Positions 2,558 through 57,647 of a stretch of DNA of 64,000 nt are shown here, piece by piece. The DNA comes from Miscanthus floridulus (taxonomy: Eukaryota; Streptophyta; Magnoliopsida; Poales; Poaceae): assembly GCF_019320115.1 (NCBI RefSeq), contig NC_089589.1, positions 17,299,641 to 17,363,640 of the forward strand, given 5' to 3'. The stretch's first letter is position 1. Every line of letters begins with the position of its first letter. Position numbers and translations under genes: made by a program. The notes beneath the pieces were generated by a model that did not search any database, had not been told where the DNA came from, and saw only the letters and a program-made list of their open reading frames with translations.

Positions 2558-3580
2558 ATGGGTGCTGGCGCGATGGAGGCCTCTTCCCCGGCTGCCTTCG
2601 ACGGCGACGGCACGAGCACGACCATCGAGGACCTCCCGGCGGACGTCCTGGCCCTCGTGCTCCGCCGCCTCGATGGCGCGTCGCTGGCGGCCGTCGGGTG
2701 CGCGAGCTCGGGCCTCCACGGCCTCGCCACCGACCCGGACACGTGGCGGGCGCTCTGCCTCGCCATGTGGCCCTCCGTCCGCGACCTCCTCCCCTGCCTA
2801 GGCCTCGGCGGCGGCGACGTCGACCACCGGGCGTTCTTCGCCGACGCCTTCCCCTTCCCGTGCTCGGACTCCCCATCCCCTCCCCCGCCCTCGCCCTCGC
2901 ACCCGCAGCCGCAGCCCCTGCCGGCGCGCCTCGTGTCGGCCGTCGATCTGAGCCACGCGGGGGTCAGCATCCTCTCCCGCGTCGTCGAGACGGACGCCGA
3001 CTCGGACTGGTTCCTGGGCGCGCCGTTCCGCGTCGACGCGCTGGTGCAGGAAGGCTTCACGTTGCCGACGGCCGCCTCGGCGTCGGGGATCTCCCACGCC
3101 GACCTCGAGCTCAACTGGGTGCTGCTCGACCCGGCCACGGGCCGCGCGCTCAACGCGTCCAGCCGCCGCGCCGTGGCCGTCGACCGCAAGTGGCTCACGG
3201 GGGACACCGTGGCGCGCTTCGCCGTCGTGCTATCCGGCGGCGAAGGCGGCGTCGCGCTCGACGCCGCCGTCACGTGCGACGAGCGGTACGGCCACGTCCG
3301 CGAGGTCAGCCTGCGCGTCGAGGACGCCGACGGCGCCGGCGTCAGCGGCAGGGACGGGCTCGCCGCCGTCGCCGCCGCCATGGCCGCGCCCAGGCGGCGC
3401 GGGTGCCGCGGGGGCGCCGCGGCGGAGGACGCGGCGAGGGAAAGGTACGAGGACTTCGTCAGGGGGAAGAGGGCGCGCAAGGAGTGGAAGGCCAGGCGCG
3501 AGGGCATCCTTGACCTCTGCTGCTCCGGCGTCGGCGCCGCCGCGTTCCTCGGCTTCCTGGTTATGCTCACGTTCCGGTGA
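2558..3580 (+). CDS. F-box protein, At2g27310/At2g36090-like
   Basis: This single-exon gene encodes 340 residues. An F-box lies at about residues 22-70: the segment IEDLPADVLALVLRRLDG leads into a CASSGLHGLA stretch and then DTWRALCLAMWPS. That pattern marks the grass and Arabidopsis At2g27310/At2g36090-type family. Such proteins are thought to bind SKP1 and present substrates to SCF ubiquitin ligases; no substrate is known here. A proline/serine linker (about 105-125) separates the F-box from a conserved middle domain. A basic stretch near residues 300-318 precedes a hydrophobic C-terminus (about 319-340) that could anchor the protein in a membrane. An in-frame ATG at 2573 has a better initiation context than the first at 2558, so the true N-terminus may be five residues shorter. 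The frame is intact and very GC-rich. Confidence 0.88.
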   Translation: MGAGAMEASSPAAFDGDGTSTTIEDLPADVLALVLRRLDGASLAAVGCASSGLHGLATDPDTWRALCLAMWPSVRDLLPCLGLGGGDVDHRAFFADAFPFPCSDSPSPPPPSPSHPQPQPLPARLVSAVDLSHAGVSILSRVVETDADSDWFLGAPFRVDALVQEGFTLPTAASASGISHADLELNWVLLDPATGRALNASSRRAVAVDRKWLTGDTVARFAVVLSGGEGGVALDAAVTCDERYGHVREVSLRVEDADGAGVSGRDGLAAVAAAMAAPRRRGCRGGAAAEDAARERYEDFVRGKRARKEWKARREGILDLCCSGVGAAAFLGFLVMLTFR

Positions 3581-45541: not shown

Positions 45542-45967
45542 CACTTTGTCCAATCCAATGTTTCTTGATCATTGACTCATTTGCCTCCCTGAAAATGACA
45601 GCAAGCTTTTTTACAAATTACTAAATAATTGAACGAAAATGACTCACAATGTAGTCAACCAAAACATAATTGAATCAATATGTTAGTTTAAAAGCCTTGA
45701 TTAGTTATGAAACTTATCGGTTCCTTCACAAGCTCTATCCCTATCTCTTGCAGTGGCTTCTCGACATGTCACTATTTCCTTTCAGAAAGCCAAGCATCAA
45801 GATCAATGTAAAAGGACAACAATTTTGAAGCTAAATGATAGGAGCAGATCTCAGCTTTCAACCTCACTGTAAAAGGACAGCAGAATCGGCTAACAACAAA
45901 CACAACCCTAACGGGAAATGCATCTCTGCAGTCCAAATCCTCTTACTAGCAACTCAGTTGTCAAAAT
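45542..45967. other. Single-copy-like spacer between two insertions
   Basis: These 426 bp of AT-rich DNA were once contiguous with 12552 on the left and 57648 on the right. No coding sequence is seen. The last five bases (AAAAT) are the left TSD of the Tekay element. Confidence 0.6.
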
Positions 45968-48912
45968 TGTGGCAGAACCTCCTAAATTATAGGACCCACA
46001 TACACTTGTCACTGTCCAACGACCTTTGACAACAATGCATATGTTCCTGGTAACTTAAGAAGTCTGTCGGGTGTCCTCGGGGAACCCCGAATCATCCACG
46101 ATTTCCGAGCAGGATCACGTTACAGAGTCATTGTAGTATTACAACATTTATTCAAATATCTACACCAGAGTAAAAACAGCGGAAGTCTTACAATAACATA
46201 ATTTACAAAACAGTAGTTTCAAACCTCGCAACTAGGTTCGATGTTTATTACAAAACGAAATAGTGGAGTGGCATTATAATATAATACAAAACACACAATG
46301 AAACTGCCCTGTCCAAGGGCCACACATTTACTTCTCATCGTCAGAACGAACGATAGTCATGCAGCACGATCCAAAATAGATCTGCTCATGAGGCTCACCT
46401 GCAACAAGGGTCAACGAACCCTGAGTACAAAAGTACTCAACAAGACTTAACCGAAATAAAATTGATAGAACTCAGGAATGCAGGCTCAGGAATTCAAGGT
46501 ATGGTTTTAGCAATAATCAAAGTTATTTTGCGTAAAAGCTCTTTGACAAAATTCTTTATTTCAACAATTTAAACTTCATAAAATCATATACAAAGATGAC
46601 ACGATCCGTAATGAGATCATGAAACTTCATATCCAACACCTTCATCAACCATTCTCAAGTTCCAGTTATTAATACTACGATGACGAACAGTGAGTTGAGT
46701 CTCCATAACCGAGGAGCAACGACGATTCGAACCTATTATAAACCCAGCTGGGACTTCCAGACCACACGACATATGCAGATCCCCGACCTACATATACCAA
46801 CCTACCCTCGGATCCTCTAAAACAAGAACGGGTCCGCGCCACCCGAGAATACAGTACTCCACCATTCCAGCCCATGGCCACGTGGGTACACGCTATTCCC
46901 GCCATCTCTCCACTCCCAGTGCGCGAGTAGCCATTCTCGTAATAGAATCGCCAAGTTCAGGCTTACCGGAGTATGTGGTTAGTACTACAAATTCTCACCT
47001 CATGCAATTCAACAATGGGCGTGCCTTAATCGACACAGGCGGAAAGATCCCACTCACAAGACCTCCATGTCTTGTGGCTCACACACACCGAGTCCGCCTG
47101 GTCTAGATTTATTACTCCACATTCCCATATCACATGCTATCATAATTAACCAATGTTCCATTTAAAACTTACAGGTGGCAGGTAGTCACCCGACTTCATC
47201 GTTCTACGCATAGCTAAGCAAAACTAGGCATATACGAGTTCAAAACTGGTAATATGGTAAATATGGAATAACAAGGGTGGTAATGCACCAATTAGGCTCT
47301 TACTTAACTCTTAATCACTTAATGCAGTAACGGAAATCAAAAGCGAAATTAATTTGTAAAACACAAGGTAGAGTTGTATGCATCCGGGGCTTGCCTTCGT
47401 TGACGGAAAAGTCTGGTTCCTGCGACGTCACACAAGTATTCGATCTGACCTCAACAGACAGATCAACCTCCTCCGCAACTTGATTAACTACCACGTGTTC
47501 ACCTTCGTTTACTACACGTAGTAACATTGCCATGTTTAACATGATGTGGAATATGAAACATGATGCTCGATGATGGATGCAAAAATTAATAAATTGGATA
47601 CAATTTTCCTTCGCAGTACAGTTACAAACCAAACTAACCAAACCATATTCGTAACTGATGTGACCACGCCAGCACCGATCACTTTGGTGAACTCTCTGAC
47701 CACTACGGTGAACTATCCGACCACTACGGTGAACTCTCCGACCACTACGGTGAACTATCCGACCACTACGGTGAACTATCCGACCACTACGGTGAACTAT
47801 CCGACCACTACGGTGAACTATCCGACCACTACGGTGGCTGATACACCACTCCAATTCCATACTGGACCAAGCACAACGATGACCATGGCGGCACGATGGC
47901 ACGACCACACTACACTGGTGACACAAGCACGATAGAGGTTAAACACTAAGCAGAGAAGGGTTCAGCACCTCACCCCGAACATGACTGAGCAACGAGCAGG
48001 GTCGGAGGAGCAATGGAGAGGCGTGACGACGACTACGGTGATCACGGCGGAGCAAAGATCGTCGGTGAGGGAGAACCAGCGACTGCAGTGATCAAAATGA
48101 GTAAACAATAACTGATTAAGTACTACAGCATCGAGATGAAGCCGTAAGTACACTGATTACGGACAACGGCTCACCGGAGGGCTCTGGCCACGATGACACG
48201 CCCGCGGCGGTGAAGTTGCCGACCGCGAGGAAGAAAGATGTGGACAGCGGATTCTTGACAATTTCTGGCGACCAATGTTAGCTGGCTGGATTCGCAAGGA
48301 AAAGACGGAACTAGGACGGCCTTTACCGAGATGGCAACGGCGGTGGTGAAAACAAAGGAAGAAGAAAAACGACGACTACGGCGTCTTGGTACTTATAGCG
48401 CGGCGCAGAAGCTCAAGGAAGCCACGACGGAGCCGTTTCCGCACCAGCGCGACATCAAGGACAGCCACGACGCGCCTGGAACGCCGAAGAAGGTCCGACG
48501 GCAATGTAGCTTAGGCGGTGAACACTGTTCACAGAAATTACAAAATTGCCATTCACCAAAATTCACAAATTACTCTCAAATTTTCATAACAACTCAAAAA
48601 TCTCCAAAAACAAAAGTTGTTCAAAATCAAAAGTTCTACAACTTTGCTTTTATAACCAACCCCTAATTCAGTCTAGATTTTGAAATGGATTTTTAGGGTA
48701 GAATTTAAATGTTGAAAAGCGGGGTTTTCTCGAAAAATTCAAAATCCAAACAAACTTTGAATTTAAGTCAAACAATACAATTCAACACATACCACATGAA
48801 TATAAACTTGTTTTAGTGTATGCATCTCAAAGTTTTCACCAAATGCCAAATGCTTTGTAATGCATATGATGACATGTCAGGTTTTAGTATTTTAAACACC
48901 CGAGGTGTTACA
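45968..48912 (-). repeat. Tekay 3' LTR
   Basis: The LTR is 2945 bp, running on + from TGTGGCAG to GGTGTTACA. It contains seven 21-bp tandem repeats and a minus-strand TATA-like CTATAAGTA at about 48392-48399. Confidence 0.9.
47690..47836. repeat. 21-bp tandem array, seven units (3' LTR)
   Basis: Seven head-to-tail units of AACTATCCGACCACTACGGTG, with one-base variants in units 1 and 3, lie downstream of the LTR TATA box and so within transcribed LTR sequence. Translated they give meaningless NYPTTTV repeats. Confidence 0.9.
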
Positions 48913-48925
48913 ATCTTTCCCCCTA
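48913..48925 (-). promoter_or_regulatory. Polypurine tract of the Tekay element
   Basis: On the minus strand TAGGGGGAAAGAT directly precedes the 3' LTR start TGTAACACC. Confidence 0.8.
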
Positions 48926-49080
48926 AAAGAAATCTCGCCCCGAGATTCAAAGCCATAGAGTAAGTAATGGAAAAGGAAATGTGTCAATCCAAAAACATCC
49001 AAAACTTACCTATGAAACAGCTGAGGTTCCTTTACAAAACACAACTTGTAACAACCGAGCTCAACTAACATTATTCTATT

Positions 49081-51900
49081 TTATATTGACGCTAGAAACT
49101 CTGGAAACTTTTCTAACAAGTAATCTTCTGATTCCCAAGTAGCTTCCTCTTCTGAATGTTGATTCCATTGTATTTTATAGAACTTGATTGTCCATCTTTG
49201 AGTAACACGATCTTTCTGATCTAACACTCGGATAGGATATTCGGAATAAGTTAAATCCGGTTCTAGTTCCACTCCTTCAACTTCAACATTCTGTTCAGGC
49301 ACTTGGAGACACTTCTTCAATTGAGAAACATGGAACACATCATGCACAGCTGCGAGATGTTCAGGTAATTTCAAGCGATATGCCACTTTTCCATACCTCT
49401 CCAAAATTTGATATGGTCCAATGTATCGGGGTGCCAACTTTCCTTTAACACCAAAACGGTTAACTCCCTTCATTGGTGATACTTTCAGATATACAAAATC
49501 TCCTTTGTTGAATACCAATGGTCTCCGTCGTCTATCCGCATAACTCTTTTGGCGGGACTGAGCTATCTTCAGATTACTCTGTATTTGCCTAACCTTGTCT
49601 TCTGTTTCTTTCACAAGGTCAACTCCAAAGAATCTTATTTCTCCAGGCTCAGACCAACTCAATGATGTTCTGCATCTACGACCATAGAGTGCTTCAAATG
49701 GAGCCATTCTAATGCTTTCCTGATAACTATTGTTGTAGGAGAACTCGGCCAAAGGTAAGCATTCATCCCACTTATTGGAATAGTTAAGGACACAACACCT
49801 TAACATATCTTCAAGTACTTGATTAACTCTTTCAGTCTGTCCATCAGTCTGCGGATGATAAGCTGTACTATACAGAAGTTTAGTACCCAATGAAGCATGT
49901 AAGTGTTTCCAAAAGCTGGAGACAAACTGTGTACCCCTATCTGACACTATAGTCTTGGGTACTCCATGCAAACTCATGATTCTTGCTAAGTACATTTTGG
50001 CATATTGGATCGTAGGATATATTGTCTTGACTGGAAGAAAATGTGCTGACTTAGTGAGTCGATCTACAATAACCCATACTGAGTCAAATCCCTTTGATGT
50101 CTTGGGTAGACCAACAATAAAGTCCATACTTATGTCCTCCCACTTCCAAGATGGAATAGGCAATGGTTGTAATTCACCAGCAGACCTCAAATGTATAGCT
50201 TTCACCTTTTGACAAGTATCACACTTTGCTATATATCTAGCAATCTCTATTTTCATTTTAGTCCACCAGAATCTTTGCTTCAAGTCATGGTACATCTTGT
50301 TACTTCCCGGATGGATAGATAACCTAGTAGCATGTGCCTCATCTAAAATTGACTGTCGCAACTCAGGAACCTTTGGTACCACCAGGCGATCCTTGAACCA
50401 CAACACATCTTCATCATCTATGCTGAAGCATTCTGCTTTTCCATTCTCGACTCTTTCCTTGATATGGGCTATACCCTTGTTTTCCTTCTGAGCAGCAATA
50501 ACTTGATCTCGAATAGTGGCTTCTACAATTATGTTGGTCAAACTTCCTTGTTGAATTACTTCTATATTCAACTTTTCCATTTCTTGACATAAAGTCAAAC
50601 CCATTGTTTTCACTGCTAGACAATTACAATAACTTTTGCGACTGAGAGCATCTGCAACTACATTTGCTTTACCAGGGTGATAATGTACTTCCAAATCATA
50701 ATCCTTAATCAGTTCTAACCATCTTCTTTGTCGCATGTTCAACTCTGACTGAGTAAAGATATACTTTAAGCTCTTGTGGTCTGTATACATATGGCACGTA
50801 TTACCAAGCAGGTAATGCCGCCAAATCTTCAGAGCATGAACTACAGCTGCTAACTCCAAGTCATGGGTCGGATAGTGTTCTTCATGTTGCTTAAGTTGCC
50901 TGGACGCATAGGCAATGACCCAGCCTTCTTGCATCAACACACATCCAATACCAATACCTGAAGCATCACAATAAACATCAAACGGCTTCTCGATATCAGG
51001 TTGGGCTAATACTGGGGCAGTAGTCAACAGTCTCTTCAAAGTCTGGAAAGCCTCTTCACAATCTGATGACCAGACAAACTTGACTTGGTTCTTCAACAAT
51101 TCAGTTATAGGTTTTGATATTTTAGAGAACTCTGGAATAAACCGACGGTAATACCCCACCAATCCAAGAAAACTCCAAACTTGATGAACTGTGGTTGGCG
51201 GTTTCCAATCAAGCACATCCCTCACTTTGCTGGGATCAACTGCAACTCCTTCAGCTGACAAGACATGTCCAAGAAATTGCACTTCCTTAAGCCAAAAATC
51301 ACACTTGCTGAACTTGGCATATAGTTGATGTTCTCTCAAGTGGGTCAGAACAATTCTGAGATGTTCCGCATGTTCTTTCTTATTCTTGGAATACACTAGA
51401 ATGTCATCAATAAACACCACTACAAACTTGTCTAGCTCAGGCATGAATACTGAGTTCATCAGATACATGAAATGAGCTGGAGCATTTGTCAATCCAAAAG
51501 ACATTACCAAGTATTCATATAATCCATATCTTGTGGTAAATGCCATTTTGGGAATATCTTCAGGCTTTATCTTAATTTGGTGATACCCTGATCTCAAATC
51601 TATCTTGGAGAAAACTTTGGCTCTGGCCCATTGATCAAAAAGCAAATCTATCCGAGGTAATGGATACTTATTCTTGATGGTCACTTCATTCAACGGACGA
51701 TAGTCAACACATAACCTCAGGGTCTCATCTTTCTTTTTCACAAAAATTGCCGGACATCCCCAAGGTGAGGAACTAGGTCGAATAAACCCCTTCTCAATCA
51801 ACTCTCGTAACTGAGTCTTCAACTCGGCCAATTCCTTAGGTGGCATCCTATAAGCTCTCTGAGAAATCAGAGCTGTTCCAGATCGTAACTCTATGTTAAA
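49081..51900 (-). CDS. Tekay pol: RT, RNase H, integrase, chromodomain
   Basis: The open frame begins just after a TAG at 51901-51903 and is uninterrupted to the natural stop. RT motifs include [47 protein letters not shown] and the catalytic [12 protein letters not shown] about 145 residues into the ATG-started part. RNase H starts at [13 protein letters not shown]. Integrase has an HHCC region ([21 protein letters not shown]), DDE residues ([25 protein letters not shown]) and a GPY-type segment (RYIGPYQIL). The C-terminus is a chromodomain ([31 protein letters not shown]). Chromodomains on such integrases are thought to guide insertion to methylated-histone chromatin. Expression needs readthrough of, or an intact allele at, the TAG. 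Confidence 0.92.
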
Positions 51901-53571
51901 CTATACATCCCTATCAGGTGGTAGACCAGGTAAATCTTCAGGAAACACATCCGGAAATTCACACACTATCGGAATATCTCTAATCTCTTTGACAGCAGTC
52001 GCACAAATCTTGCCCACTGATCTTCTTAGGGTTGGAAGTTGGATGAAAAGTTGAGAATTACTATCAGGCAAACTTACTCTTAAAGTCCTATTCAAAGCAT
52101 CTATAATAGCCTTATGCTGATACATCCAATTCATTCCCAAGATTACATCTATATCCTGATCCTTAAGGATAATCATGGTAGTGGGAAAAATATGCCCACC
52201 CAGGTTTACGGGTACCTGGTATACCATTTCCTTAGTACACAGACGTCCCCCGGGCGACTGTATAAAGAAACTTTCCTTTGTTGCCCCAATTGAAATTTCA
52301 TGCTTCACAACAAATGTTCTATTGATGAATGAATGCGATGCGCCAGAATCAAAAAGTATAACTGCAGGGTGATTGGCAACAGGAAACATACCCATCATCA
52401 CTGGCTCTCCTTCAGGAACTTCCCCGGCTTGAATATAGAAAACCCTTCCTATCTTCCTCTCATCTTTGCCCTTCTGAGCATTCTGATTGGGGTTCTTGTT
52501 TGGTGCCTGACCTTGTTGTTGATTGGCAGGGGCCTTCTGATAATTTTGATTAGCCTGCCTAGGGTATGGACATTCCCTGGAGAAATGACCAGTCCTTCCA
52601 CAATTGTAACACGGATAGTTGTGACCCTGTGACGTTGGAGCATTGCCACCAGAAGCATTGGTTGACTGTGAGTTCGGATAGGTTATAGCAGGACGGACAT
52701 TTGACTGTTGCCCGGCTTGAGACTGTGGCGGACGGTAAGGAGGACGATAATGGTTTACTGGATGATAAATCACTCTCTGCCTCTTTTGGTTTCCACCAAA
52801 AGGTCCAGACGGCACATTCTTTTTCTTCTTGAGCTCCTTATGCTGCCGATACTTTGCCTCTGAAGCAATTGCAATATTTACTGCCTCATGATAAGTGATA
52901 TTGGTACAGGCTATCATCATTGTCTGTAGTTTGGTATTCAGACCTCTCATGAACCATTTCTTTTTCTTGGCATCCGTATTAACATGTTCAGATGCATACT
53001 GCGATAGATGATTGAATCTTCCCACATACTGCATCACTGTTTGATCCCCTTGCCTCAAAGCAAGGAATTCATCCAGCTTCATAGCCATCACTCCTTCTGG
53101 GATATAATGGGCTCTGAAAGCAGTGCAAAATTCTGTCCAAGTTAACGGAACGCCTACGGGTTGCATGGCCATCAGATTTGCATACCAAGCACCAGCTGCA
53201 CCTCTAAGTTGCTGGGCAACAAACACCAGTTTTTGAAACTCTGTGCAGTGAATAAGATCAAATTTCTGCTCCATGGTCCTAAGCCAGTCATCAGCCTCTA
53301 GTGGTTCATCTGCCTTGGTGAACATCGAGGGTTTTGTATCCGTGAAATCCACATAGGTAGCCTCATGCCTGTTATGATTGCGGCCACGGTTTCCATGCAT
53401 CTGATTCTGATTACTTTGAGCCATCTCATGAAGCAAACGAGAATTTTCCACAGTCACATTGACTAATGCAGCGATAGCATCAGCCAAATTAGTTGGCATC
53501 GGTGGCGGGTTGGGGATATCATCATCATCTTGTGAAGTACCAGGAATATGTGATCCCCGCGTACGACGCAT
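51901..53571 (-). CDS. Tekay gag and protease
   Basis: The frame starts at an ATG (53569-53571) directly after a splice-acceptor-like TTATGAGCAG. It holds the gag core (TKADEPLEADDWLRTMEQKF, LVFVAQQLRGAAGAWY, FRAHYIPEGVMAMKLDEF), then a zinc knuckle CYNCGRTGHFSREC near residue 320, and the protease active site LFDSGASHSFI near residue 405. It ends at TAG 51901-51903, in the segment before RT. Pol continues in the same frame with no other stop, so the two are one polyprotein with a single nonsense codon. Related elements have a glutamate-type residue near this position, so a G-to-T change is likely. Confidence 0.9.
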   Translation of the reverse strand: MRRTRGSHIPGTSQDDDDIPNPPPMPTNLADAIAALVNVTVENSRLLHEMAQSNQNQMHGNRGRNHNRHEATYVDFTDTKPSMFTKADEPLEADDWLRTMEQKFDLIHCTEFQKLVFVAQQLRGAAGAWYANLMAMQPVGVPLTWTEFCTAFRAHYIPEGVMAMKLDEFLALRQGDQTVMQYVGRFNHLSQYASEHVNTDAKKKKWFMRGLNTKLQTMMIACTNITYHEAVNIAIASEAKYRQHKELKKKKNVPSGPFGGNQKRQRVIYHPVNHYRPPYRPPQSQAGQQSNVRPAITYPNSQSTNASGGNAPTSQGHNYPCYNCGRTGHFSRECPYPRQANQNYQKAPANQQQGQAPNKNPNQNAQKGKDERKIGRVFYIQAGEVPEGEPVMMGMFPVANHPAVILFDSGASHSFINRTFVVKHEISIGATKESFFIQSPGGRLCTKEMVYQVPVNLGGHIFPTTMIILKDQDIDVILGMNWMYQHKAIIDALNRTLRVSLPDSNSQLFIQLPTLRRSVGKICATAVKEIRDIPIVCEFPDVFPEDLPGLPPDRDV

Positions 53572-53747
53572 CTGCTCATAACAAACCAACTTTATTCACA
53601 AGCCTTTATTGAATTGCACAAAGCTTACTCCAGACACATTACATAGGGTTTACTACTATAAACACCAGGCCCTATAAGTACCAAAACAAGATACATAGCT
53701 CAACCATAATTAACTATTATCCAACTCTACTCTTTTCTGTGATTACT
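53572..53747 (-). other. Spacer between upstream frame and gag
   Basis: These 176 bp hold two AATAAA motifs on the minus strand (53591-53596 and 53605-53610) and end in a splice-acceptor-like CAG directly before the gag ATG. This suggests that gag may be translated from a spliced transcript and that the upstream frame has its own 3' end. Confidence 0.45.
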
Positions 53748-54314
53748 TCAAACTTCAGGCTTGGTATCCATTCCGGAATTATTACCGCCTTCATCATCAC
53801 TTTCATTGATCATTACTAATTCTTCAGGATCTTCTTCTTCCTCTTCCGATTCACTTTCATTGGCAAGGATGACACCTGGGTCCATGGCATCAGCTTGAGG
53901 CTCATGATTCGGGTTTAGTAGATTGCTAAGCCTATGCACTTCCTCATGTAGATAGGTATTATGTTCTTCTAAATCTTCTACATAGAACTCTAGCTCATGA
54001 GTTCTAGCTCTAGCTACATTTTCCCTATGCCAAGCCTCATTTTGTCCCTCCACCGTACGAACTAATATACTTTCGCAGTTCCTGTGTGCGGTGGTGAGAC
54101 GTCTCAATTGATCCTGTAATTCTCCTACCTATATAGCATCCAAAGCCCTATCTCTAGTAGCTTGTGCTAATTCTATAGAAATTCTCTGTATCTCCGCCTG
54201 GGGATCAGGCCTAGAACTGCTACTTCTAGCACCATCGTTTCTAGGGGCAAGTTGGTGACGAGGAACTCCTTTGGGTCCAGTGGACTTACGGGGCGTCATC
54301 TTGGCACGAGCCAT
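53748..54314 (-). CDS. Tekay upstream ORF with histone H3 tail-like N-terminus
   Basis: The frame starts at ATG 54312-54314, one base after an acceptor-like TTTCCTACAG. The first residues read MARAKMTPRKSTG and continue with PKGV then PRHQLA. Against the histone H3 start (MARTKQTARKSTG, GKA, PRKQLA) about 16 of 22 positions match with one inserted residue. Kept are the equivalents of R2, K4, T6, R8, K9, S10, T11, K14, R17 and Q19-A21; K18 is His. A serine-rich linker, heptad-like coiled-coil sequence (about residues 35-125) and an acidic tail (ESESEEEEEDPEE) follow, giving about 187 residues. One in-frame TAG (54129-54131) interrupts it near residue 62. I do not recognise a named family. The role is unknown; histone mimicry is inference. 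Confidence 0.7.
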
Positions 54315-54703
54315 ACTGTAGGAAACCAATTTAATCCAAGTGAGACCATTTGACCAAAGTCTAAAGAACAGCTATGATGGATTACATTCCTCAAACCAGA
54401 CTCACTACTCAACTCTAGACTAAGAGGTGAAGGAAGTAACGAGTGAATTATTCATGATGCATGAATCGTTCTTACGAACAGAAACATCAAAGTTTATAAT
54501 GCACATAAACAACATTTATTTTTATATAGGGCATAGTAAGATTACTACTCCACCACACAAGACCCTTTTAATCAAATAAGGAATGGTGAGAAAGAAATAA
54601 GATAAGTCAGAAGCAATTTGGACCAAACTATCAAGTTAAATTTAGTCATCCAAATCATTTTGAAGTTTTTGTAAAACAATACAACAAAAACCTTGTAACG
54701 ATC
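54315..54703 (-). other. Untranslated leader of the Tekay element
   Basis: This AT-rich leader lies between the primer site and the upstream frame. It contains donor-like sites (TTACAAG|GTTTTT near 54690 and CTGTTC|GTAAGA near 54475) and ends at the acceptor-like TTTCCTACAG (54316-54325). No coding sequence is seen. Confidence 0.45.
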
Positions 54704-54715
54704 GCTCTGATACCA
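54704..54715 (-). promoter_or_regulatory. Primer-binding site, initiator Met tRNA
   Basis: On the minus strand TGGTATCAGAGC lies three bases after the 5' LTR end. It is the standard site complementary to the 3' end of plant initiator methionine tRNA. Confidence 0.9.
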
Positions 54716-54718
54716 TTC

Positions 54719-57642
54719 TGTGGCAGAACCTCCTAAATTATAGGACCCACATACACTTGTCACTGTCCAACGACCTTTGACAACAATGCATATGTTCCTG
54801 GTAACTTAAGAAGTCTATCGGGTGTCCTCGGGGAACCCCGAATCATCCACGATTTCCGAGCAGGATCACGTTACAGAGTCATTGCAGTATTACAACATTT
54901 ATTCAAATATCTACACCAGAGTAAAAACAGCGGAAGTCTTACAATAACATAATTTACAAAACAGTAGTTTCAAACCTCGCAACTAGGTTCGATGTTTATT
55001 ACAAAATGAAATAGTGGAGTGGCATTATAATATAATACAAAACACACAATGAAACTGCCCTGCCCAAGGGCCACACATTTACTTCTTATCGTCAGAACGA
55101 ATGATAGTCATGCAGCACGATCCAAAACAGATCTGCTCATGAGGCTCACCTGCAACAAGGGTCAACGAACCCTGAGTACAAAAGTACTCAACAAGACTTA
55201 ACCGAAATAAAACTGATAGAACTCAGGAATGTAGGCTCAGGAATTCAAGGTATGGTTTTAGCAATAATCAAAGTTATTTTGCGTAAAAGCTCTTTGACAA
55301 AATTCTTTATTTCAACAATTTAAACTTCATAAAATCATATACAAAGATGACACGATCCGTAATGAGATCATGAAACTTCATATCCAACACCTTCATCAAC
55401 CATTCTCAAGTTCTAGTTATTAATACTACGATGATGAACAGTGAGTTGAGTCTCCATAACCGAGGAGCAACGACGATTCGAACCGATTATAAACCCAGCT
55501 GGGAGTTCCAGACCACACGACATATGCAGATCCCCGACCTACATATACCAACCTACCCCCGGATCCTCTAAAACAAGAACGGGTCCGCGCCACCCGAGAA
55601 TACAGTACTCCACCATTCCAGCTCATGGCCACGTGGGTACACGCTATTCCCGCCATCTCTCCACTCCCAGTGCGCGAGTAGCCATTCTCGTAATAGAATC
55701 GCCAAGTTCAGGCTTACCGGAGTATGTGGTTAGTACTACAAATTCTCACCTCATGCAATTCAACAACGGACGTGCCTTAATCGACACAGGTGGAAAGATC
55801 CCGCTCACAAGACCTCCATGTCTTGTGGCTCACACACACCGAGTCCGCCCGGTCTAGATTTATTACTCCACATTCCCATATCACATGCTATCATAATTAA
55901 CCAATGTTCCATTTAAAACTTGCAGGTGGTAGGTAGTCACCCGACTTCATCGTTCTACGCATAGCTAAGCAAAACTAGGCATATACGAGTTCAAAACTGG
56001 TAATATGGTAAATATGGAATAACAAGGGTGGTAATGCACCAATTAGGCTCTTACTTAACTCTTAATCACTTAATGCAGTAACGGAAAGCAAAAGCGAAAT
56101 TAATTTGTAAAACACAAGGTAGAGTTGTATGCATCCGGGGCTTGCCTTCGTTGACAGAAAAGTCTGGTTCCTGCGACGTCACACAAGTATTCGATCCGAC
56201 CTCAACAGACAGATCAACCTCCTCCGCAACTTGATTAACTACCACGTGTTCACCTTCGTTTACTACACGTAGTAACATTGCCATGTTTAACATGATGCGG
56301 AATATGAAACATGATGCTCGATGATGGATGCAAAAATTAATAAATTGGATACAATTTTCCTTCGCAGTACAGTTACAAACCAAACTAACCAAACCATATT
56401 CGTAACTGATGTGACCACGCCAGCACCGATTACTTTGGTGAACTCTCCGACCACTACGGTGAACTATCCGACCACTACGGTGAACTCTCCGACCACTACG
56501 GTGAACTATCCGACCACTACGGTGAACTATCCGACCACTACGGTGAACTATCTTACCACTACGGTGGCTGATACACCACTCCAATTCCATACTGGACCGA
56601 GCACAGCGATGACCATGGCGGCACGATGGCACGACCGCACTACACTGGTGACACAAGCATGATAGAGGTTAAACACTAAGCGCAGAAGGGTTCAGCACCT
56701 CACCCCGAACATGACTGAGCAACGAGCAGGGTCAGAGGAGCAACGGAGAGGCGTGACGACGACTACGGTGATCACGGCGGAGCAAAGATCGTCGGTGAGG
56801 GAGAACCGGCGACTGCAGTGATCAAAATGAGTAAACAATAACTGATTAAGTACTACAGCATCGAGACGAAGCCGTAAGTACACTGATTACGGACAACGGC
56901 TCACCGGAGGGCTCTGGCCACGATGACACGCCCGCGGCGGTAAAGTTGCCGACCGCGAGGAAGAAAGACGTGGACAGCGGATTCTTGGCAATTTTCGGTG
57001 ACCAATGTTAGCTGGCTGGATTCACAAGGAAAAGACGGAACTAGGACGGCCTTTACCGAGATGGCAACGGCGGTGGTGAAAACAAAGGAAGAAGAAAAAC
57101 GACGACTACGGCGTCTTGGTACTTATAGCGCGGCGCAGAAGCTCAAGGAAGCCACGACGGAGCCGTTTCCGCACCAGCGCGACATCAAGGACAGCCACGA
57201 CGCGCCTGGAACGCCGAAGAAGGTCCGACGGCAATGTAGTTTAGGCGGTGAACACTGTTCACAGAAATTACAAAATTGTCATTCGCCAAAATTCACAAAT
57301 TACTCTCAAATTTTCATAACAACTCAAAAATCTCCAAAAACAAAAGTTGTTCAAAATCAAAAGTTCTACAACTTTGCTTTTATAACCAACCCCTAATTCA
57401 GTCTAGATTTTGAAATGGATTTTTAGGGTAGAATTTAAATGTTGAAAAGCGGGGTTTTCTCGAAAAATTCAAAATCCAAACAAACTTTGAATTTAAGTCA
57501 AACAATACAATTCAACACATACCACATGAATATAAACTTGTTTTAGTGTATGCATCTCAAAGTTTTTACCAAATGCCAAATGCTTTGCAATGCATATGAT
57601 GACATGTCAGGTTTTAGTATTTTAAACACCCGAGGTGTTACA
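54719..57642 (-). repeat. Tekay 5' LTR
   Basis: The LTR is 2924 bp with the same termini as the 3' LTR. It is 21 bp shorter, exactly one unit of the internal array. The TATA-like CTATAAGTA at about 57122-57129 (-) would drive the element leftward. Confidence 0.9.
56441..56566. repeat. 21-bp tandem array, six units (5' LTR)
   Basis: Six units of the same repeat as in the 3' LTR; the last is degenerate (AACTATCTTACCACTACGGTG). Confidence 0.9.
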
Positions 57643-57647
57643 AAAAT

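What the first reader, a model, noticed from the sequence alone, without database searches (positions are those of the whole stretch)
54240..54314. Retrotransposon ORF that begins with a histone H3 tail mimic
The minus-strand frame upstream of gag in the Tekay element starts, from its first ATG, with MARAKMTPRKSTG and then PRHQLA. This matches about 16 of the first 22 histone H3 residues, in register from the initiator Met, so Met removal would expose ARAK just as H3 exposes ARTK. Equivalents of K4, R8, K9, S10, T11, K14 and R17 are kept. The DNA also contains CGTAAGTCCACTGGA, which can be read as the H3 codons for RKSTG, so capture of a host H3 5' end is possible. A methylatable or acetylatable mimic could attract or decoy H3 readers and writers. 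Match and position are seen; function is inference. I do not know of a description of this in Tekay elements.
Basis: partly seen in the sequence, partly recalled or inferred. Interest (0 to 1): 0.88.

Follow-up and report, generated by a model that had tools for sequence, protein, structure and literature searches.

The report
Retrotransposon protein wearing a histone tail
A very abundant plant jumping gene encodes a small protein whose first 24 amino acids look like the tail of histone H3 and seem to come from the first coding exon of the host's own H3.3 gene, so the parasite may be showing the cell a false chromatin tag.

Summary
The ORF upstream of gag in a Tekay-type element (window 45968-57642, minus strand) starts MARAKMTPRKSTGPKGVPRHQLAPR: 15 of the first 23 residues of mature H3, with one inserted residue. 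The other 1,877 window ATGs score far lower and 0 of 1,000,000 shuffles reach it. A profile of ten relatives' tails hits H3 at E 4e-8. Distant relatives are H3-like at partly different residues, and the tail is better conserved than the rest in 21 of 21 pairs.

New evidence on origin: 12 of 15 shared-residue codons equal one host H3.3-type gene (expected 5.3; P 0.00035 over 20 H3 genes). The protein match spans the first coding exon of such genes, which ends at K23 in 8 of 8 fetched. Exon capture is the best reading. Transversions are depleted in the tail.

This copy is dead (stop after codon 61); copies without stops exist. Function is inferred: a coiled-coil protein showing H3-like tails to H3-binding or import proteins. 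Protein-level selection on the tail is not shown. ORF0 is known; no description of its H3-like start was found in the papers searched.

The parts
45968..57642 (-). Complete LTR retrotransposon insertion (Tekay type), about 11.7 kb
   Evidence: LTR pair 97.6% identical over 2946; TG...CA ends and ATTTT duplicated on both sides
54719..57642 (-). 5' LTR of the element (target-site copy ATTTT at 57643-57647)
45968..48913 (-). 3' LTR of the element (target-site copy ATTTT at 45963-45967)
54704..54715 (-). Primer binding site TGGTATCAGAGC beside the 5' LTR (initiator-Met tRNA type; label recalled)
   Evidence: sequence
54315..54718 (-). 404-nt leader with 11 upstream ATGs
54316..54325 (-). TTTCCTACAG, splice-acceptor-like, one base before the ORF0 ATG; possibly a trace of the H3.3 intron end (inference)
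   Evidence: 23 of 30 copies carry the identical last 20 nt of leader
54240..54314 (-). H3-like N-terminal tail of ORF0 (Met plus 24 residues), the reported finding
53748..54314 (-). ORF0 frame upstream of gag; one in-frame TAG at 54129-54131 in this copy
53916..54203 (-). Long single helix, likely coiled coil (residues 38-133 by homology to the P0004 model)
   Evidence: AlphaFold2 on alignment A3 with P0004 first, 91 residues at pLDDT 90 or more
53751..53915 (-). Acidic C-terminus of ORF0, disordered in the model
   Evidence: sequence; low pLDDT there
51901..53571 (-). gag-protease ORF
   Evidence: Pfam RVP_2, Retrotrans_gag, zf-CCHC
49081..51846 (-). pol ORF (RT, RNase H, integrase)
   Evidence: Pfam; same frame as gag, separated by at least one stop (coordinates)
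49093..49224 (-). Integrase C-terminal chromodomain with motif EEATWESE
   Evidence: Pfam Chromo E 4.9e-5, 23.6 bits, below the curated cut-off of 25.1; motif described in PMC3350952

Best explanation
ORF0 of this Tekay-type family begins with a captured copy of the first coding exon of a host H3.3-type gene (Met to K23), changed by one inserted codon and by point changes. The exon is joined to a Ser-rich linker, a long coiled-coil helix and an acidic tail. After Met removal, expected because Ala follows, the protein would expose Ala-Arg-Thr/Ala-Lys and present several H3-like tails on a nuclear oligomer. The tails are most likely kept because they engage host proteins that bind the H3 tail (readers, writers or importers), to the element's benefit, for instance by tethering or by acting as a decoy in silencing. 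Shown: sequence match, exon extent, codon agreement, wide retention, low variation, disordered tail before a helix (a model). Inferred: translation, Met removal, nuclear location, oligomer, binding, benefit. My estimates: origin by H3.3 exon capture about 0.75; function through H3-tail-binding proteins about 0.4.
For: Match to H3 far above chance.

Distant relatives are H3-like at partly different residues, as expected if the ancestor was nearer to H3: P0151 ARTKQAARKSSG..., P0154 ARQKQTPRKRTG..., P0134 ARTKLTARKATE....

12 of 15 same-residue codons equal H3.3-type gene L100 and 11 of 15 L099; 5.3 and 5.6 expected from the element's own codon usage; P(best of 20 H3 genes reaches 12) = 0.00035 in 20,000 simulations. 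The four other intron-type genes give 7-9; the 14 genes L082-L095 give 3-5.

In 8 of 8 intron-type H3 genes fetched, the first coding exon ends AAG|GT after K23, where the protein match also ends; in two an acceptor-like CAG abuts the ATG (separate downstream exon matches). All eight best blastn hits of leader plus ORF0 begin exactly at the ATG; the two longest end at base 68-69 of the ORF, the other six at base 39.

Tail identity exceeds body identity in 21 of 21 pairs.

In 28 distinct copies ranked by the coiled-coil part, transversions touch 2 of 75 tail columns, 50 of 300 leader (P 0.0007), 35 of 288 helix (P 0.017) and 20 of 165 C-terminal columns (P 0.016).
Against: pN/pS in the tail (0.33) is higher than in linker, helix and C-term (0.06-0.14), and synonymous diversity in the tail is low too (0.035 against 0.11-0.18), so the constraint may act on RNA or on the start region rather than on the peptide (23 distinct copies).

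H3-unlike tail positions (P7, P13, G15, V16, H19, P23, Met as 0) are as conserved as H3-like ones.

Residues that matter for known readers have changed in 97 main-group tails: A7 to Pro in 94, K18 to His in 89, K23 to Arg in 94; Q5 is variable. The six P0154-group tails all lose T3, and five of them A1.

With all 66 distinct copies the tail/helix transversion contrast weakens (5 of 75 against 42 of 288, P 0.08); leader and C-term contrasts stay (P 0.0016, 0.04). Columns and copies are not independent.

Six of the eight nucleotide matches to intron-type genes cover only the first 13 codons.

Distant relatives were found with words that include the tail, so they are biased towards tail keepers. 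The codon test is one evolutionary event with few codons, and its null uses the codon usage of this one decayed copy.
Confidence: 0.55

Rival explanations
1. Same captured exon, but it works as an H3-type nuclear import signal that carries ORF0, and what it binds, into the nucleus; chromatin readers are not involved.
For: The stretch shared best across lineages is GPKGVPRHQLA, the H3 12-21 region. Kap123 binds H3 through K14 and K23 and does not read residues 15-22 specifically (PMC5677370, passages). Other Tekay 5' ORF proteins are predicted nuclear (PMC11728184, passages).
Against: K23 is Arg in 94 of 97 main-group tails, and G13, which Kap123 wants small, is Pro in 92 of 97. Conservation of KGV is partly built into the search words. 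No import test was possible.
Confidence: 0.25
2. Captured exon without mimicry: the stretch is kept as translation start, RNA signal or general basic nucleic-acid-binding tail; H3 likeness is a relic.
For: Low synonymous as well as nonsynonymous variation. H3-unlike positions equally conserved. The P0154 group has drifted at residues 1, 3 and 10.
Against: Tail identity exceeds body identity between deep lineages in 21 of 21 pairs. Lysines 4, 9 and 14 are kept in 96, 96 and 97 of 97 main-group tails.
Confidence: 0.3
3. Convergence: selection for mimicry built an H3-like tail from unrelated sequence.
For: Short H3-tail mimics of viral proteins are known (influenza NS1, PMC12937675, passages).
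Against: Synonymous codon agreement with H3.3-type genes, the exon-sized extent and length (15 of 23 residues from the first one) go beyond what mimicry needs.
Confidence: 0.12
4. The tail is a ligand of the element's own type II chromodomain, linking ORF0 to integrase or making new insertions recognise the element's own protein.
For: The element carries a chromodomain. Type II chromodomains lack cage residues and their partner is unknown (PMC6317226 passages; PMC3350952 passages).
Against: No interaction evidence. Sunflower Tekay groups without 5' ORFs also have type II chromodomains (PMC11728184, passages).
Confidence: 0.1
5. Chance resemblance of a basic N-terminus picked out by eye.
For: The tail is short and basic.
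Against: 0 of 1,000,000 shuffles; profile E 4e-8 with H3 or H3-like chains in all 60 rows shown of 137.
Confidence: 0.01

Closest known systems
ORF0 / 5' additional ORF of Tekay (Del) chromoviruses: RIRE3, RIRE8, Retrosat2, FRetro3, ZMsat2, Sorsat2, sunflower Tekay group 2 (PMC3485330 passages and section 14; PMC11728184 passages)
   Same: Extra ORF upstream of gag, LTRs of about 3 kb in the rice elements, chromodomain-type element, fast-evolving ORF0
   Different: No H3-like N-terminus was seen in the passages read, and 'histone' occurs 0 times in the main text of both; their ORF0 sequences could not be fetched for comparison
Viral H3-tail mimics such as influenza NS1 (PMC12937675, passages)
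   Same: Short stretch resembling the H3 N-terminal tail in a genomic parasite's protein
   Different: There it is in the C-terminal region; here it is an exon-sized tail at the N-terminus, apparently captured, in a plant retrotransposon; no binding shown
LTR retrotransposons that captured host gene pieces, such as maize Bs1 (recalled, no call)
   Same: Host coding sequence carried inside an LTR element
   Different: Here the piece is an H3.3-type exon at the start of an element ORF, in a family with 9,306 first-look candidates in one genome
Histone H3.3
   Same: Residues 1-23 in part, codons and exon extent
   Different: No histone fold: one long helix and an acidic tail follow (model of P0004); no Pfam histone match

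Membership tests
Tekay (Del) chromovirus | Ty3/gypsy order gag-PR-RT-RH-INT with C-terminal chromodomain | tested here: met
   Pfam hits in order; Chromo 23.6 bits, below the curated 25.1 cut-off
Tekay (Del) chromovirus | Tekay-characteristic chromodomain motif EEXTWEXE (PMC3350952) | tested here: met
   EEATWESE in pol C-terminus; motif text
Tekay (Del) chromovirus | (K/R)-X-(L/T)-R-X-(K/R) motif in the chromodomain | tested here: inconclusive
   Window reads RVTQRW (no match); genomic copy L102 reads RVTRRR (match)
Tekay (Del) chromovirus | RT phylogeny placing it in the clade | not tested
   No reference RT set at hand
Retrosat2/RIRE3-type ORF0 | Extra ORF upstream of gag in an element with LTRs near 3 kb | tested here: met
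   description in PMC3485330
Retrosat2/RIRE3-type ORF0 | Sequence homology to published ORF0s | not testable with these tools
   Published ORF0 sequences not at hand
Histone mimic (functional) | Sequence match to a histone tail beyond chance | tested here: met
Histone mimic (functional) | Binds or is modified by histone readers or writers | not testable with these tools
   Needs bench work
Captured host exon | Synonymous-site similarity to the donor beyond codon usage | tested here: met
   12 of 15, P 0.00035 over 20 genes
Captured host exon | Similarity limited by exon borders of the donor | tested here: met
   Exon ends at K23 in 8 of 8 genes; the protein match ends there; nucleotide matches start at the ATG in 8 of 8 and reach within two to three codons of the end in 2 of 8, base 39 in 6 of 8
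Histone H3 proper | Histone fold after the tail | tested here: not met
   Single helix 38-133 in the model, no Pfam histone

The most novel reading that the evidence does not exclude
A plant retrotransposon family captured the first coding exon of host H3.3 and uses it as a multivalent H3-tail mimic on a coiled-coil protein, either to divert H3K4/K9/K14 readers and writers from its own chromatin or as the missing ligand of its type II chromodomain. This would be histone-tail piracy by a transposon against the silencing system that controls it.
Probability: 0.3. Interest if true: 0.92.

Novelty: new variant of a known kind. Interest (0 to 1): 0.8.

Why it matters
What the extra ORFs of Tekay elements do is an open question, and so is the partner of plant type II chromodomains (PMC6317226, passages). 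A captured H3.3 tail gives ORF0 a precise, cheap hypothesis: peptide binding to H3 readers, writers and importins. If true, a transposon fights silencing by imitating the substrate of silencing.

Tried and rejected
Pfam on ORF0: only sub-threshold matches (bestrophin-type, HALZ), treated as coiled-coil noise. Viral contigs with ORF0, gag and pol: no relatives. Genome contigs: one weak 26% match in a bacterial contig (L001), judged a coiled-coil chance hit. My first tail table required KG followed by V or A; redone by alignment it again gave 105 tails. P0151- and P0154-type elements were not among the 150 scored matches in this genome (best 58% and 61% identity), so dN/dS between deep lineages could not be done. 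Reading H3 capture from CGTAAGTCCACTGGA alone, as the finding does, was rejected as uninformative without a donor gene; the donor comparison replaced it. PMC3485330 gives about 10% similarity between Retrosat2 and sorghum ORF0s, so the tail may be absent elsewhere; this is open.

Paper searches (ten of ten used) gave no description of an H3-like ORF0 start; only listings were seen except for the papers cited. The library lacks most subscription papers; Steinbauerova 2011, a survey of extra ORFs, is not held, and Kumekawa 1999 was not looked up.

Full report
WHAT IS THERE. The window (contig C10 of an unnamed 2.68-Gb genome) holds a complete LTR retrotransposon on the minus strand, 45968-57642, with 2.9-kb LTRs 97.6% identical, TG...CA ends and an ATTTT target duplication. 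It carries gag-protease and pol ORFs with integrase and a C-terminal chromodomain. EEATWESE fits the Tekay motif EEXTWEXE of PMC3350952 (passages). Between 5' LTR and gag lies an extra ORF, 53748-54314, in the position of the known ORF0 of Retrosat2, RIRE3 and RIRE8 (PMC3485330, passages and section 14).

THE OBSERVATION. The ORF starts MARAKMTPRKSTGPKGVPRHQLAPR. Against mature H3 1-23 it has 15 identities with one inserted residue after K14. Scored the same way, the best of the other 1,877 ATGs in the window reaches 19 against 60, and none of 1,000,000 shuffles reaches 60. The 25-mer finds H3 in the PDB at E 0.0045; a profile of ten tails reaches E 4e-8, with H3 or H3-like chains in all 60 rows shown of 137. 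This copy has a TAG after codon 61, so it cannot make the whole protein. Of the 150 genomic copies scored and listed, about 108 have no stop (my count), and the first look gave 9,306 candidates (a loose count).

THE FAMILY. Three protein searches gave 457, 821 and 348 relatives at E up to 0.01, of which the best 120 each were listed. Of 208 proteins held (the window's own, with X, included), 105 have a full tail. In 97 main-group tails K4, K9 and K14 are kept in 96, 96 and 97. Arg 2, 8 and 18 (Met counted as 0) are not Arg in 29-38%, mostly His or Cys, while Arg 24 is kept in 94. In the 30 genomic copies the first three are CGT codons (in 27 to 30) and the last AGA (in 29), so the losses fit methylation-driven decay of silenced copies (inference). 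Position 5 is free. P0151, the P0154 group and P0134 keep H3 residues that most of the main group has lost (Q5 or A7) and lose others. That pattern fits an ancestor nearer to H3. Tail identity exceeds body identity in 21 of 21 pairs of seven representatives, for example 88% against 46% for P0004-P0154 and 71% against 46% for P0004-P0151 (body by local alignment). Pairs are not independent, and distant relatives were found with words that include the tail.

COPIES NOT CHOSEN BY THE TAIL. Searching the genome with P0151 ranked copies through the coiled-coil part (query residues 102-236 in the 30 fetched). Of those 30 loci, 24 show the tail in frame with the body; in six the frame is shifted within or after it (my count). 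Of all 80 loci L002-L081, 79 have a tail at an ATG with at least 17 of 25 residues like the window's. Among 28 distinct copies of the 30, transversions touch 2 of 75 tail columns, 50 of 300 leader columns, 35 of 288 helix columns and 20 of 165 C-terminal columns (Fisher P 0.0007, 0.017, 0.016). With all 66 distinct copies of 80 the figures are 5 of 75, 67 of 300 (P 0.0016), 42 of 288 (P 0.08) and 28 of 165 (P 0.04). Against protein-level selection: pN/pS is 0.33 in the tail and 0.06-0.14 elsewhere, and tail pS is low (0.035; 23 distinct of 30 copies). All tail differences listed there are transitions.

ORIGIN. Host H3 genes were located and 20 starts fetched. Counting only codons for the same residue, the window tail equals 3-5 of 15 codons in the 14 genes L082-L095, but 7-12 of 15 in the six genes with an intron after K23: 12 in L100, 11 in L099, 7-9 in the rest. 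From the element's own codon usage 5.3 and 5.6 are expected for L100 and L099; the chance that the best of the 20 reaches 12 is 0.00035 (20,000 simulations). Eight intron-type genes were fetched with flanks, six of them the same as above. The coding exon ends AAG|GT after K23 in 8 of 8, and in L107 and L108 an acceptor-like CAG abuts the ATG (the introns are inferred from this and from separate downstream exon matches). ORF0 has TTTCCTACAG one base before its ATG. The best blastn hit of leader plus ORF0 to each of the eight starts at the ATG; it ends at base 68-69 of the ORF in two and at base 39 in six (best E 6e-5). The protein match runs to H3 residue 22. So the H3-like part has the extent of this first coding exon, and I read it as exon capture. 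That these intron-type genes are H3.3 is inferred from the intron and from plant H3.3 genes as recalled; residues 1-23 do not separate H3.1 from H3.3. Codon counts were not made for the two GC-rich intron-type genes L109 and L110.

HOW IT MAY WORK. The model of relative P0004 (mean pLDDT 76.9, 34-row alignment) has a disordered tail 1-37, one helix 38-133 with high confidence and a disordered acidic C-terminus. A coiled-coil oligomer, not modelled here, would show several H3-like tails. Other Tekay 5' ORF proteins are predicted nuclear (PMC11728184, passages). Changes at A7, K18 and K23 argue against a perfect copy of any one reader site. The K14 region suits H3-type import signals in part (PMC5677370, passages), but K23 is Arg and G13 is Pro. 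The partner of type II chromodomains is unknown (PMC6317226, passages), so an ORF0-integrase contact is open. I place engagement of H3-tail-binding host proteins first (about 0.4), start-region or RNA constraint and import next.

START SITE CAVEAT. The leader has 11 upstream ATGs; the H3-like ATG has A at -3 and G at +4. Some relatives have an open frame reaching further upstream (for example P0071, P0126, P0151), where another start would bury the tail. A spliced leader would solve this; not tested.

NOVELTY. ORF0 is known; its H3-like start was not found in print: 'histone' occurs 0 times in the main text of PMC3485330, PMC11728184 and PMC7264820 (passages read), and the searches listed no paper on it. 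Steinbauerova 2011, a survey of extra ORFs, is not held, and most subscription papers are outside the library.

Noticed in passing
47675-47836 and 56437-56566: A 21-bp tandem repeat inside both LTRs differs in copy number (7.7 and 6.2) and makes a repetitive open frame on the minus strand.
   Followed up: no
L102 (G000:C16:84614949-84617500): A genomic copy in which ORF0 runs straight into the RNase H part of pol in one long open frame, apparently by an internal deletion; its chromodomain reads RVTRRR where the window has RVTQRW.
   Followed up: partly
51847-51900: gag-protease and pol ORFs of this copy are in the same frame and separated by at least one stop, so gag-pol seems broken as well as ORF0.
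   Followed up: partly
L092-L095, L091: Four host H3 gene starts encode R instead of K at residue 18 (PRRQLATK), one of them also T for A at residue 7 (L095), and L091 reads MARMKQTARKS by eye: possible H3 variants.
   Followed up: no
54315-54718: Leader with 11 upstream ATGs and a splice-acceptor-like end; some relatives' frames stay open upstream with similar text (MLTFRSS...LTLYR), which could be intron or an N-terminal extension.
   Followed up: partly
2558-3580: A 340-aa plus-strand ORF that looks like an F-box-type host gene by eye; no domain search was run.
   Followed up: no
54240-54314 in copies and relatives: In protein relatives the tail arginines that are CGT-coded in genomic copies are often His or Cys while the AGA-coded one is not, a likely footprint of cytosine-methylation decay in silenced copies.
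   Followed up: partly
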